A stretch of DNA of 34,104 bases, taken from contig JAPPMU010000026.1 in assembly GCA_028873965.1 (NCBI GenBank), positions 35,909-70,012 on the forward strand, in the 5' to 3' direction. The position numbers were made by a program, and so were the translations under genes. Shown here piece after piece: positions 20,773-24,628 of this stretch; positions within the stretch are counted from its first letter, which is position 1; the number at the start of each line of letters is the position of its first letter. Source of the DNA: Chloroflexota bacterium (GTDB lineage: Bacteria > Chloroflexota > Dehalococcoidia > Lucifugimonadales > UBA3495). Under the pieces are notes generated by a model. That model ran no database searches. It was not told the origin of the DNA and saw only the letters and a list, made by a program, of their open reading frames with translations.

Positions 20773-20793
20773 CTGTTGTTCAGTCTTTCCACC

Positions 20794-22191
20794 ATGGCGC
20801 CCGCGATTCGCGGCGGGACGGCGGCCAAGCTGTTGCTGGCCGTCGCGGTGTTTCTCGCCATCCTGCTCATGCCCACGCCTGAAGGGTTGAGCGCGAACGG
20901 TCAGCGCGCCCTGGCGGTGATGCTCCTCGCCGTGATCCTGTGGGCCACCGAAGCCATTCCCGTCCCCGTGGCCGGCGTCGGCGGCGTTGTCCTGCTGGTG
21001 CTCATAGGAGCCGTGCCGGAACTGGGGCCGGCTCTCTACGGATTCTCCCAGCCCGTGGCCTACTTCCTGATTGGCATCCTGACGCTGGGACTGGCGGTGC
21101 AGCATTCGGGCCTGGCGGAACGACTGGCCACGTGGCTCATGCGGGGCGCCCAGGGAAGCCCGCGCCTGCTCTACGTGCAGATGTTGTTCTCCTTCGCTGC
21201 CCTGACCTTCGCGCTGCCGTCGGCCAGCACCCGCGGAGCGATCATGGTCCACGTGTACGAGCAGGTGCTGGACCGCTGGAACATACCCAAGGAACACCCG
21301 CTGTACAAGGCGACGATGATGGCCATGGGCAGCCTCAATCGCCTCGGCTCCACCGCGCTGCTGGCCGGCGGCATCACCCCCGTGGTCGCCTCCGGTCTGC
21401 TGGGAGACTTTTCGTGGACCCAGTGGTTCGTGTTGATGAGCGTGCCCTTCTACGCCAACCTGATCGTGGGCGGCGCCGCGGTGTTCCTGTTCTATCGATC
21501 CGGATTCCGCCTGGGTGACGAGGCCGCCAACGCCGCCGTGGCGCTGGACCGGATCAGCCCCGTCGAAATGCGGGCCGCCGGCATCGTCGCGATCACCGCA
21601 CTGCTGTGGTTCACCGATTTCGCCCACGGCCTGCATCCGGCGGTTCCCGCGATGATCGCCATGTGCCTGATCCTGCTGCCGCGGGTCGGCATCCTCACCT
21701 GGAGCGAGTTCGAGAGGAACCTGGGCTGGTCCAACTTCTTCATCATTGCGACGTCGCTGTCGCTGTCCCACGCGCTGGTGACCACCGGCGCGGCGGCCTG
21801 GTTCTCGCAGACGCTGGTTGGAGGCGTGTCCCAGCTGGCCTCATCACCCATGCTGGTGCTGTTGCTGCTGTGCGTGTGTTTCGCCATGCTGCGGTTCATC
21901 CTGCCCAACATCGCGGGCTACCTGGCGCTGGTAATCCCGGTCACCATGGCCGCCGCCGAGTCCCTGGGCCTCGACCCGCTGGTATGCGGCATGGCCGCCG
22001 TGGTGGTGGGCGACTCGGTGGTGTACTACAGCGCCGGCGGGACCGCCAGTGTTTTCATCTTCCAGCGGGCCAACATCTCCAACCCGGAGATCTTCCGGTT
22101 CGCCGTGACCATGACCGTCATTGCGACGGCCATCCTGTTGCTGGGAGTGATCCCTTACTGGGGCCTGGTGGGTCACCCGCTGGTTCCATAG
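20794..22191 (+). CDS. SLC13/DASS-type membrane transporter
   Basis: A 465-residue polytopic membrane protein with about 11-12 hydrophobic segments. Early motifs AVMLLAVILWATEAIPVPVAG and a repeat-related later half are typical of SLC13 (divalent anion:Na+ symporter) permeases, which carry di- and tricarboxylates, sulfate or related anions. The region LPSASTRGAIMVHVYEQ sits where the family has its SNT-type substrate/sodium motif; here SAST is seen. Substrate cannot be assigned. ATG at 20794 was chosen; a TTG at 20776 adds six residues. Neither start has a clear ribosome site, and a hairpin lies just upstream. Convergent with the thermonuclease-like gene, 9 bp apart. Confidence 0.85.
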   Translation: MAPAIRGGTAAKLLLAVAVFLAILLMPTPEGLSANGQRALAVMLLAVILWATEAIPVPVAGVGGVVLLVLIGAVPELGPALYGFSQPVAYFLIGILTLGLAVQHSGLAERLATWLMRGAQGSPRLLYVQMLFSFAALTFALPSASTRGAIMVHVYEQVLDRWNIPKEHPLYKATMMAMGSLNRLGSTALLAGGITPVVASGLLGDFSWTQWFVLMSVPFYANLIVGGAAVFLFYRSGFRLGDEAANAAVALDRISPVEMRAAGIVAITALLWFTDFAHGLHPAVPAMIAMCLILLPRVGILTWSEFERNLGWSNFFIIATSLSLSHALVTTGAAAWFSQTLVGGVSQLASSPMLVLLLLCVCFAMLRFILPNIAGYLALVIPVTMAAAESLGLDPLVCGMAAVVVGDSVVYYSAGGTASVFIFQRANISNPEIFRFAVTMTVIATAILLLGVIPYWGLVGHPLVP

Positions 22192-22200
22192 TCCGTCCGC

Positions 22201-22746
22201 CTACAATAGGGTCACTATCACCAGCGCCAACCCTGCCAGCACGATGACAAACGCGCCGATCATCATCCACGTGAGAACGCGCCGCAACCGCCGGCGTCGT
22301 TGTCGCGCCCGTCGCAGGTCGGCGCGATAGTCCCAGGGACGCCGGATCCGGTCACCGTGCCGCCAGATACCGCGCCGGCGTCGTTTCGCCTCCGCCTCTG
22401 CCTCCGGAAACCCCAGGTCTCGGCCGCCGTAACGCCGGTACCACCACGCCATGCCGGAGCGAACCATATCCACGTTGATGGACTGGCCACGCCGCCGCCG
22501 GTAGAGCAGTCCCACCGTCCGCCCGTAGCGGTCGGTGGTCATGGCCTCCATGCGGATCCCGCCCCGTCGCACCAGAGTCTCCAACTGCTTGCGCGACTCC
22601 TGCCCATAGGGCTGGGCCAGTTCCGGCGCGTCAATGCCATAGAGGCGCACCGGAAACGGCCGCCGCAGGAAGCTGAACAGCCCCGCGTATTTGACCTCCA
22701 GCGAGTCGCCGTCGATGACCCGCCGTATCCGCACCCTGCGGGCCAT
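22201..22746 (-). CDS. Thermonuclease-like (SNase) protein with C-terminal membrane helix
   Basis: A 181-residue staphylococcal-nuclease-fold protein. VIDGDSLEV holds the calcium-binding Asp, VRLYGIDAPELAQPYGQES holds the catalytic Arg and following Glu region, DRYGRTVGLLY is the usual third motif, and GMAWWYRRY follows. After an Arg-rich stretch comes a single hydrophobic helix (about 158-180, VLTWMMIGAFVIVLAGLALVIV), so it is tail-anchored rather than secreted; there is no signal peptide. Its ATG lies 7 bp after the TAG that ends the extended rhodanese frame, suggesting an operon with that gene. Confidence 0.87.
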   Translation of the reverse strand: MARRVRIRRVIDGDSLEVKYAGLFSFLRRPFPVRLYGIDAPELAQPYGQESRKQLETLVRRGGIRMEAMTTDRYGRTVGLLYRRRRGQSINVDMVRSGMAWWYRRYGGRDLGFPEAEAEAKRRRRGIWRHGDRIRRPWDYRADLRRARQRRRRLRRVLTWMMIGAFVIVLAGLALVIVTLL

Positions 22747-22753
22747 CTGCGGC

Positions 22754-23626
22754 CTACACGGTCATCGGCGTGTCGTCCCGGTTGGCCCACTCGCTCATGG
22801 ACGCGTCGTAGTTCTTGGCGTTCTCGAAGCCCACCAGGCGCAGTACGAAGTTTCCGTGCGCCGCACGGATGCCGGCCTGTCAATAGGAGTACGCCGTCTT
22901 GTCCGGCGTAATGCCGTGCTCGGTGAGAATGCGCCGGATCTCCGCCGCCGGCTTGAACTCGTGGGTGTTGCGGTCCATCAAGTTGAACCACTCCAGGTGC
23001 ACCGCGCCGGGAACATGACCCTGCCGCTGGTTCTGGTAGTTGGGGGCGGAGCCGTCCCACTCGCCGTCGCTGCGCACGTCCCACACCACCACGTTGTCGC
23101 CGAGCCCCCCGTCCAGTGAACAGGCCGCCTTGAGCTCGTCGCCGGTGGCGATGAACGACTGGTCGGCGCGCGGTGTGAAGGTCACCGCCGCCGGCGCCCT
23201 GGCTCGGCCAAAGTCCACGGGCTGCCCCGCGTTGACCCAGGCGCGCCAGCCGCCGTTGAGCACCTTGACGTTGGTGTGGCCGTAGTAGTTGAACACCCAC
23301 CAGATGCGCGCCGCCGTCAGCCCCTGGGCGTGATCGTAGGTGACCACGGTGGTGTCGTCGCCGATCCCCAGGCCCTCGGCCATGGCCTTGAACTGCTCCG
23401 GCGCCATGACGTGCTGCCCACGTGCCCCTGATCCTATCGCGGTGTCGGGGTTCTTGGCCCAGTTGTCGGCCACGTGGGCCGCGCCGGGAATGTGTCCGCG
23501 CTGCCAGGCGTCGGCGGTGTTGGCGCAGTCCAGCACCACCACGTTGGGGTCGTCCAGGTGTGCGGCGACCCAGGCGGCGTCGGTCAGGTACTCGGGGTGC
23601 GCGTAGTCTTCGGTGTGAGTCGTCAT
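22754..23626 (-). CDS. Tandem-rhodanese sulfurtransferase with in-frame TGA at the catalytic Cys: probable selenoprotein
   Basis: Thiosulfate/3-mercaptopyruvate sulfurtransferase type, two rhodanese domains. The N-terminal domain (WQRGHIPGAAHVADNW) has VTYDHAQGLTAAR, where Asp replaces the active Cys, as usual for the inactive half. In the C-terminal domain (VVWDVRSDGEWDG, GHVPGAVHLEW) the active loop should read YCQ(A/G)G.RAAH; here it reads Y-[TGA]-QAGIRAAH, the TGA being codon 249 (22880-22882). The frame continues for 41 residues of clearly conserved rhodanese sequence (FVLRLVGFENAKNYDASMSEW, NRDD.P) to TAG at 22754-22756. A hairpin follows the TGA. Total 290 residues if TGA is read as selenocysteine. 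Conventional gene calling would stop at 22880 and lose the active site. GGAG lies about seven bases before the ATG at 23626. Alternatives are a recent nonsense mutation or a base-call error. Confidence 0.75.
22853..22869 (-). promoter_or_regulatory. Candidate bacterial SECIS hairpin downstream of the in-frame TGA
   Basis: In the transcript, TCCGTGC and GCACGGA form a perfect 7-bp stem closing a GGC loop. Exactly 17 nt lie between the TGA and the first loop base. Bacterial SECIS elements, as I recall the published model, have a short stem, a small apical loop with G among its first two bases, and 16-37 nt between UGA and loop. All three hold here. A GC-rich coding region can form such stems by chance, so this is supportive rather than conclusive. 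Confidence 0.6.
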
Positions 23627-23827
23627 CAAGCGGCTCCTGCGGTCAGGTTTGAGTTGCCGGGATTGTAGGCGGCGACGGCCCGGCGGGTCAACGGCGGCGG
23701 CAGTTCGAGAACGCTGCGAAGCGCTATCCTATGCCGCAGGCAGTCGGCCGAGGTGGCGGCGTTGCTGCTGCCCTCCGGTTCTGCCTACCTTGATGCGGGT
23801 TTCACCTTGGCTTCAATTTAGTTGGGG

Positions 23828-23833
23828 TATAAT
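23828..23833 (+). promoter_or_regulatory. Putative -10 box of the DtxR-type regulator gene
   Basis: A perfect TATAAT within GGGGTATAATCC. The best -35 candidate, TTGGCT at 23807-23812, is 15 bp away, which is short. The 300-bp gap between the rhodanese and this gene shows nothing else I can name. Confidence 0.4.
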
Positions 23834-23926
23834 CCTGGCATACTCTTTCGTTTTTGCCAGGATCCACCTGTGGCACGTCCTCGAAACTCAACCACCAGTC
23901 CCCGCGCCCGGGAACGCAGGACCAAC

Positions 23927-24628
23927 GTGTCCGACCGGCTGTCCCCGGTGACGGAGAACTATCTGCTGTCGTTGTACAAGATGTGGGAGGGTTCCGAGAC
24001 TCCCACCCTTACCCAACTGGCGGAAGCACTGCGGCAGTTGCCGCCTACCGAGGGTCTGGGCACGTCGGTTCCCTCCGTTGCCGGAATGTTGCGGCGGATG
24101 CAGGAACAGAGTTTGGTGGATGTCGGAAGCGACAAACGTATCCGCCTGACCCAACGTGGTGTATCGGAGGGTGAGAACATCGCCCAACGCCACCGGCTGG
24201 CCGAATGGATGGTGGTCAGTCTCCTGGAAATGGAGCTTCACGAGGCCCACGTCGAGGCCCATCAGCTTGAGCACGGCATGTCGGAAACCCTGGTGACCAG
24301 ACTGAAGGATCGGCTGGGAAATCCCACCCACTCACCCTTTGGATGGCCCATACCCGGCAGCGGAGCAGCGGCGTCAACCTCCGGCGCCGTGACGCTGGAC
24401 AGCGCGGCCGCCGGCGCTCCGTACGTGGTTGACCGGGTACCCGAGGAGAACGCAGACCTGCTCAGGTTCCTGGCCGGAGCGCGTTTGGTGCCGTACCACC
24501 GAGTTACGCTGCTGGAGGCAATGCCGTACCTGGGCGTTATGCAGGTGGAAACCGAGGTGGACCGGGTATCCATCGGCTACGACGTGGCGCGTCAGATCGT
24601 GGTTCGCCCCCACGAACCTGAGCCATAG
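23927..24628 (+). CDS. DtxR/MntR-family metal-dependent transcriptional regulator
   Basis: A 233-residue metalloregulator expected to repress iron or manganese uptake genes when metal-loaded. Winged helix-turn-helix at about 8-75 (TENYLLSLYKMWE, LTQLAEAL, VPSVAGMLRRMQEQSLVDV). Dimerisation and metal-binding helices follow with the family signature HRLAEWMVVSLLEMELHEAHVEAHQLEHGMSE, whose His/Glu residues are metal ligands. The C-terminal ~75 residues match a FeoA/SH3-like domain (FLAGARLVPYHRVTLLEAM). Start taken at GTG 23927, preceded by AGGA. An upstream in-frame TTG at 23822 was rejected because it lies before the -10 box. Nearby HTTM, imelysin and Fea1-like genes are plausible targets. Confidence 0.92.
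   Translation: MSDRLSPVTENYLLSLYKMWEGSETPTLTQLAEALRQLPPTEGLGTSVPSVAGMLRRMQEQSLVDVGSDKRIRLTQRGVSEGENIAQRHRLAEWMVVSLLEMELHEAHVEAHQLEHGMSETLVTRLKDRLGNPTHSPFGWPIPGSGAAASTSGAVTLDSAAAGAPYVVDRVPEENADLLRFLAGARLVPYHRVTLLEAMPYLGVMQVETEVDRVSIGYDVARQIVVRPHEPEP

What the first reader, a model, noticed from the sequence alone, without database searches (positions are those of the whole stretch)
22754..23626. Probable selenocysteine-containing rhodanese: TGA exactly at the catalytic cysteine
The reading frame meets TGA at the one position that should be the nucleophilic Cys of the C-terminal rhodanese loop (Y-TGA-QAGIRAAH), then continues 41 codons with family-conserved sequence and no other disruption to TAG. 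The extended stop lies only 7 bp before the next co-directional gene, a normal operon spacing, whereas stopping at the TGA would leave a 133-bp gap. A persulfide-carrying selenolate would be a strong chemical variation on a very common sulfur-transfer enzyme. Sec-containing rhodanese-like proteins have, as I recall, been predicted from marine metagenomes, so the idea has precedent; this tandem-domain form may not be described.
Basis: partly seen in the sequence, partly recalled or inferred. Interest (0 to 1): 0.88.

Follow-up and report, generated by a model that had tools for sequence, protein, structure and literature searches.

The report
Selenium-using rhodanese of SAR202-group bacteria
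This bacterial gene has a UGA codon exactly where a common sulfur-transfer enzyme keeps its reactive cysteine, and nearly all of its close relatives keep that codon with a matching RNA hairpin, so it is very likely read as selenocysteine; enzymes of this kind were predicted before, but here it looks like a long-standing trait of a large bacterial group, and the best-matching database copies are cut short at that codon.

Summary
Confirmed. The minus-strand gene at 22754-23626 is a two-domain rhodanese with one in-frame TGA (22880-22882) at the catalytic-cysteine codon. The host assembly has SelA, SelB, SelD (itself with one TGA) and a tRNA-Sec with anticodon TCA. In 123 homologous copies read from relatives the aligned codon is TGA in 105 and Cys in 18, nothing else. 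A hairpin with a G-first loop follows the TGA in 100 of 104 Sec copies (4.1 expected if synonymous codons were drawn at random) and in 0 of 18 Cys copies. Codons after the TGA are under the same purifying selection as those before. A quick tree places the Sec forms in one clade of Chloroflexota that includes SAR202, with repeated Sec/Cys changes. Added here: conservation over 23 of 41 sampled families, two alternative SECIS positions, Sec-Sec tandem pairs, and truncation at the TGA in all 120 database entries listed. That the Sec carries sulfur is inferred, not shown.

The parts
22754..23626 (-). Full-length two-domain rhodanese gene, ATG at 23626 to TAG at 22756-22754, 290 residues with the TGA read as Sec
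22880..22882 (-). In-frame TGA at the catalytic-cysteine codon (codon 249 from ATG), read here as selenocysteine
   Evidence: 105 TGA and 18 Cys of 123 copies
22853..22869 (-). SECIS-like hairpin, 7 bp stem with GGC loop, beginning 10 nt after the TGA
23231..23578 (-). N-terminal rhodanese domain (no Cys in the stretch TYDHAQG, which aligns with its active-site loop)
   Evidence: (residues 18-133 of P0001)
22763..23143 (-). C-terminal, catalytic rhodanese domain with loop Y-U-QAGIRAAH (bounds approximate)
22201..22746 (-). Staphylococcal-nuclease homologue, 7 bp downstream; same neighbour in 13 of 13 genus loci examined; not needed for the mechanism

Best explanation
The gene at 22754-23626 encodes a two-domain rhodanese (thiosulfate-sulfurtransferase type) whose catalytic-cysteine codon is UGA, very likely translated as selenocysteine through a SECIS-like hairpin that begins 10 nt after it, so that the enzyme would carry sulfur on selenium. 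Shown: the TGA, its place at the catalytic Cys by alignment, its conservation, the hairpin with compensatory changes, downstream purifying selection, and the presence of SelA, SelB, SelD and tRNA-Sec. Inferred: SelB with Sec-tRNA(Sec) binds the hairpin and decodes the UGA; the selenolate takes a sulfane sulfur from thiosulfate or a persulfide and passes it as E-Se-S(-) to a thiol, thioredoxin-like or cyanide acceptor. The Sec position is the only one that is Cys or Sec in all 92 clade members compared, so a thioredoxin-like Sec-Cys pair is unlikely. The same genome keeps three Cys rhodaneses of this family, so the Sec enzyme is probably an added, specialised one.
Against: No protein, RNA or selenium data. 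By energy alone the window's hairpin is not unusual (z 0.18; 106 of 200 shuffles fold as well). By a looser count of pairs, 1 of 18 Cys copies reaches 7 of the 8 shifted pairs and 2 reach 5 of the 7 canonical ones. Only 8 of these 18 Cys copies lie inside the Sec clade; 4 lie outside it in the tree and 6 later ones were not placed. Of 10 relatives in which neither selA nor selB was found, 3 still carry the TGA form, all incomplete (56, 74 and 78% complete). Cys at the same site is found in 11 clade members, so Sec is not indispensable. Gene neighbours are not widely conserved, so donor and acceptor are unknown.
Confidence: 0.88

Rival explanations
1. The UGA is read as Sec, but the protein is a redox enzyme (peroxidase- or reductase-like) on a rhodanese fold rather than a sulfur carrier.
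For: A review holds that most uncharacterised predicted selenoproteins likely serve redox functions (PMC9312934, passage). In 5 of 87 loci examined a neighbouring gene, median 46 bp downstream on the same strand, clusters with an AhpC/TSA-thioredoxin-like protein.
Against: No conserved second Cys for a selenenylsulfide: the next best column is Cys in 75% of 92 members, at residue 35 of the N-terminal domain. The loop keeps the CxxGxR pattern of thiosulfate sulfurtransferases (pattern recalled; alignment), and the closest folds are sulfurtransferases.
Confidence: 0.08
2. The TGA is an ordinary stop: a 248-residue protein ends before the active site (pseudogene, or a truncated non-catalytic form).
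For: All 120 database proteins listed (of 1,943 over threshold) end exactly there, as automatic gene callers would make them.
Against: The downstream frame is under the same purifying selection as upstream, the only other codons seen at the site are Cys codons, and the strict hairpin is found only in TGA forms.
Confidence: 0.02
3. UGA is reassigned genome-wide (to Trp, Gly or Cys), not recoded locally.
For: The frame is open under such codes.
Against: 4 of 15 long window ORFs examined end at TGA; some relatives end this very gene with TGA (for example L031, L040, L050); relatives have Cys, not Trp or Gly, at the site; the hairpin fits Sec.
Confidence: 0.01
4. Sequencing, assembly or binning error created the TGA.
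For: The assembly is a 70-contig genome with 7.31% contamination.
Against: A TGA copy is in 95 of the 147 genomes searched (own included), over 23 of the 41 families of the order sampled (families counted).
Confidence: 0.005

Closest known systems
Sec-containing 'rhodanese-related sulfurtransferase' (COG2897 SseA / cd01449), Sargasso Sea 2005 and GOS 2008; 'form 4, UxxG' in the 2026 review (PMC1088965, PMC2398784, PMC9312934, PMC13188914; passages seen)
   Same: Same two-domain family (COG2897 as two-domain: recalled), Sec at the catalytic Cys, UxxG motif (here U-Q-A-G), SECIS directly downstream with a G in the apical loop.
   Different: Published from 3 and 8 (+1) metagenome sequences, with no organism named in the passages seen; here a whole clade, its SECIS positions, machinery, neighbours and Cys forms are mapped. 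The published representatives' sequences were not compared.
Cys thiosulfate sulfurtransferases with solved structure: Thermus thermophilus rhodanese 1uar; M. tuberculosis CysA2 3hwi and CysA3 3aax/3aay
   Different: Cys instead of Sec; loop CRIxERSSH instead of U-Q-x-G-x-R-A-A-H; 31-34% identity.
Other Sec rhodanese forms (form 1 UxxS, form 2 UxxG, form 3 CxU NF041203, form 5 TsoB; PMC13188914, passages)
   Same: Rhodanese domain with Sec.
   Different: Listed apart from form 4; two of them appear as COG0607 in PMC9312934 (single-domain by recall); form 5 is called a rhodanese/DsbD fusion-like protein. NF041203 matches the window protein weakly and below its cut-off (37.4 against 115 bits).

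Membership tests
Bacterial selenoprotein (SelB/SECIS-decoded Sec) | In-frame TGA aligned with Cys of homologues and flanked by conserved coding sequence | tested here: met
Bacterial selenoprotein (SelB/SECIS-decoded Sec) | Stem-loop directly downstream of the UGA with a G in a small apical loop | tested here: met
   feature as stated in PMC1088965 and PMC4513850
Bacterial selenoprotein (SelB/SECIS-decoded Sec) | selA, selB, selD and tRNA-Sec in the genome | tested here: met
Bacterial selenoprotein (SelB/SECIS-decoded Sec) | Sec shown in the protein | not testable with these tools
   needs mass spectrometry or 75Se labelling
Two-domain rhodanese / thiosulfate sulfurtransferase (COG2897-like) | Two rhodanese domains, catalytic residue in the C-terminal one | tested here: met
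Two-domain rhodanese / thiosulfate sulfurtransferase (COG2897-like) | Sulfur transfer to a thiol or cyanide acceptor | not testable with these tools
   needs enzyme assay
3-mercaptopyruvate sulfurtransferase (NF008557 equivalog) | Score above the curated cut-off | tested here: not met
   105.4 against 250 bits; so not filed as MST
Published Sec rhodanese 'form 4' (UxxG, COG2897) | UxxG motif in a COG2897-type protein | tested here: met
   U-Q-A-G; two domains; motif from PMC13188914. The published representatives' sequences were not compared.

The most novel reading that the evidence does not exclude
A genetically encoded selenolate acts as a sulfane-sulfur carrier (E-Se-S-) in an enzyme that is a standing trait of a SAR202-containing clade of Chloroflexota: gained once near the base of the clade, kept across 23 of 41 sampled families, changed back to Cys several times and duplicated in tandem, with a SECIS that slid 8 nt within one family and changed the protein sequence beneath it. 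Public databases hide the enzyme by cutting it off one residue before its active site.
Probability: 0.6. Interest if true: 0.68.

Novelty: new member of a known kind. Interest (0 to 1): 0.5.

Why it matters
No Sec rhodanese is described as biochemically characterised in the passages seen; the 2022 review says the functions of most predicted selenoproteins are not clear. This lineage offers matched natural Sec and Cys forms, once within one genome (G056), so the question of what Sec buys a sulfurtransferase can be tested directly. It also shows that a marine and sponge-associated bacterial group carries an enzyme that automatic annotation cuts one residue before its active site (120 of 120 listed entries, of 1,943 over threshold). 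The two alternative SECIS positions show an RNA recoding signal that has moved inside a coding sequence.

Tried and rejected
Gene neighbourhood as a clue to the acceptor: no widely shared neighbour among 87 loci examined. The nuclease gene is shared by 13 genus loci; a metallo-beta-lactamase-fold hydrolase clusters in 7 loci (6 downstream, same strand), an arylsulfotransferase-like gene in 7 (6 downstream, same strand), an AhpC/TSA-like gene in 5. Only one representative of each was named by Pfam. These are hints only.

Hairpin energy in the window sequence alone: not significant; the case rests on conservation and on the synonymous-codon control. Automatic folding of 54 nt gave many different longer structures, so only the short hairpin is claimed.

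Machinery co-occurrence: 83 of 117 genomes with both selA and selB, 9 of 20 with one, and 3 of 10 with neither carry the TGA form (Fisher p 0.013 for both against neither). Most relatives have the machinery and several genomes are incomplete, so this is weak support. Of the 6 genomes lacking both that are 89% complete or more, 0 have it. The genome lists were typed by hand; three genomes without selA that one search did not name were deduced by their absence from its list. The listing was cut, so low-scoring copies may be missed.

Genome-wide recoding, pseudogene and base error were considered and rejected (see rivals).

Rows dropped or left out: loci L065-L067 (duplicates of L037, L036, L026) before the counts; L111 (contains N) before the statistics. 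Tree: loci after L150, matches under 200 residues and the loci were not included; L065-L067, L115, L120 and L121 were left out as duplicates. The Cys-column count leaves out L122, one of the 93 rows of the clade. The tree is a quick one (SH-aLRT only) and warns of long end branches, L122, L074, L077 and L084 among them.

Literature: for the searches I saw listings; passages of PMC13188914, PMC9312934, PMC2398784, PMC1088965, PMC5649159 and PMC4513850 were read. The three papers listed were not opened.

Full report

Machinery. The assembly that holds the window (3,884,163 bases, 70 contigs, 96.94% complete, 7.31% contaminated) has SelA at 441.7 bits, SelB at 356.9 bits, above the curated cut-off, SelD at 377.6 bits with one in-frame TGA of its own, and a tRNA-Sec at 66.4 bits with anticodon TCA by ARAGORN. 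The SelD TGA was not examined further.

The codon in relatives. The read-through protein was searched in 147 genomes of the same genus, family and order, its own included. I read the codon in 89 copies from loci L025-L114 after dropping three duplicate loci: 77 TGA, 10 TGC, 2 TGT. A further 34 copies brought the total to 123: 105 TGA, 18 Cys, nothing else. 95 of the 147 genomes carry at least one TGA copy (tally), in 23 of the 41 families (my count). Among the 80 best loci kept by a scan of named genomes, 8 have TGA and 72 Cys; the 8 are titled Chloroflexi or Dehalococcoidia, and at least two of them are genomes already counted. Equal contig lengths tie family member G028 to CATOSP010000002.1, 'uncultured Dehalococcoidia bacterium', and order member G074 to QGNO01000005.1, 'SAR202-VI-29A'; two of the listed database relatives are also named SAR202.

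Selection after the TGA. Over 78 pairs of the 13 genus copies, pN/pS is 0.074 in the 41 codons after the TGA and 0.074 in the 41 before it. Synonymous change is 0.387 beyond the hairpin but 0.070 in the first 10 codons, as expected where an RNA structure lies under the codons.

The SECIS-like hairpin. In the window it is a 7-bp stem with loop GGC, starting 10 nt after the TGA. Of 104 TGA copies without ambiguous bases, 89 form at least 6 of the 7 pairs; redrawing synonymous codons with the pooled codon usage of these genes gives 6.5. Stem changes are compensated: pair 15-29 is CG in 51, GC in 10 and AT in 4 of 67 distinct sequences; pair 19-25 is GC in 63 and TA in 3. Fourteen copies, all in the window's family, lack this hairpin and instead form an 8-bp one whose loop starts 8 nt further on (GUC, GUG or GUU); there the protein reads AANS instead of the usual AAHG. 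One copy (L107) has only 5 canonical pairs. By the stricter rule of 6 unbroken pairs around a 3-nt G-first loop, 100 of 104 Sec copies and 0 of 18 Cys copies qualify, against 4.1 expected. By the looser pair count, 1 of 18 Cys copies reaches the shifted threshold and 2 reach 5 canonical pairs; 8 of the 18 Cys copies lie inside the Sec clade, 4 outside it, and 6 were not placed in the tree. Bacterial SECIS elements are described as a stem-loop immediately downstream of the UGA with a guanosine in a small apical loop (PMC1088965 and PMC4513850, passages). Energy alone says nothing: z 0.18.

History. In a quick maximum-likelihood tree of 126 copies, all 82 Sec rows and 11 Cys rows form one group (SH-aLRT 98) apart from 33 other Cys rows; the Sec/Cys label needs 7 changes, at least 4 by the starred branches. 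With the Cys lineages as outgroup, my reading is one gain and several reversions to Cys; the counts themselves cannot tell gain from loss. Pairs of Sec rhodanese genes lie within about 0.05-1.2 kb of each other in six genomes (loci L058, L114 and L201-L204). A second, divergent Sec form with loop U-[HQ]-x-G-A-R-A occurs in G031, G093 and G126 (L218-L220), with its own hairpin.

What it does. The loop fits CxxGxR, the thiosulfate-sulfurtransferase type (recalled), not CGSGVT of mercaptopyruvate sulfurtransferases (recalled); NCBI's 3-mercaptopyruvate sulfurtransferase equivalog scores 105.4, below its 250-bit cut-off. In 92 of the clade's 93 rows only residue 250 is Cys/Sec throughout; the next best column is 75%. 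This argues for sulfur carried on selenium rather than a Sec-Cys redox pair. The genome also holds three Cys family members (L195-L197), so the Sec enzyme probably serves a special donor, acceptor or oxidising condition. Neighbours give hints only: beyond the nuclease lies a Na/sulfate-symporter family gene on the other strand, and some relatives have a metallo-beta-lactamase-fold hydrolase, an arylsulfotransferase-like or a thioredoxin-like gene next door.

What is known. Sec in COG2897 'rhodanese-related sulfurtransferase' was predicted from the Sargasso Sea (3 sequences, predicted SECIS shown for AACY01016424 according to the figure legend; PMC1088965) and the GOS data (8 cd01449 plus 1 COG2897 sequence; PMC2398784), and is listed in the 2022 and 2026 reviews (PMC9312934, PMC13188914); I saw passages of each, not the whole texts. 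COG2897 and cd01449 denote the two-domain type by recall. Searches for Sec together with rhodanese, sulfurtransferase, Chloroflexi, SAR202 or sponge listed no paper that, by title, abstract start or the passages seen, ties this selenoprotein to SAR202; not all listed papers were opened. [quoted passage not shown] In protein databases the family is cut: 120 of 120 listed best matches, of 1,943 over threshold, end exactly at residue 249 of P0001, the last before the Sec; those that carry a name are called sulfurtransferase, one hypothetical protein.

Verdict. It is a new, very well supported member of a predicted but, as far as I saw, uncharacterised selenoprotein family.

Noticed in passing
L013 (own genome C10:54762-55679, minus): The genome's SelD match also contains one in-frame TGA, so SelD itself may be a selenoprotein; the position was not examined.
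   Followed up: no
L039-L049 except L041, plus L053, L054, L198, L221: Fourteen copies in the window's family use a hairpin whose loop lies 8 nt further downstream, with a changed protein sequence (AANS for AAHG); L200 has 6 of 7 canonical and 7 of 8 shifted pairs. In the tree L050, L051 and L063 with the canonical hairpin sit among them.
   Followed up: partly
L058, L114, L201-L204: Two Sec rhodanese genes within about 0.05-1.2 kb of each other, same strand, in six genomes of the family.
   Followed up: partly
L218, L219, L220: A second, divergent Sec rhodanese form (33-35% identity to the window protein) with loop U-[HQ]-x-G-A-R-A and its own SECIS-like hairpin.
   Followed up: partly
L222: A Cys rhodanese paralogue in G043 has an in-frame TAG shortly after the catalytic loop, at a Trp position of its relatives; probably a broken copy or an error.
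   Followed up: no
window 20776-22191 and 23822-24628: The Sec rhodanese/nuclease pair is flanked by a Na/sulfate-symporter family gene and, divergently, a DtxR-type metal-dependent repressor with a FeoA domain; the repressor was not among the shared neighbour families shown.
   Followed up: partly
L072 and L081 (G056): One genome holds both a Cys form and a Sec form within the same clade, a natural pair for comparison.
   Followed up: no
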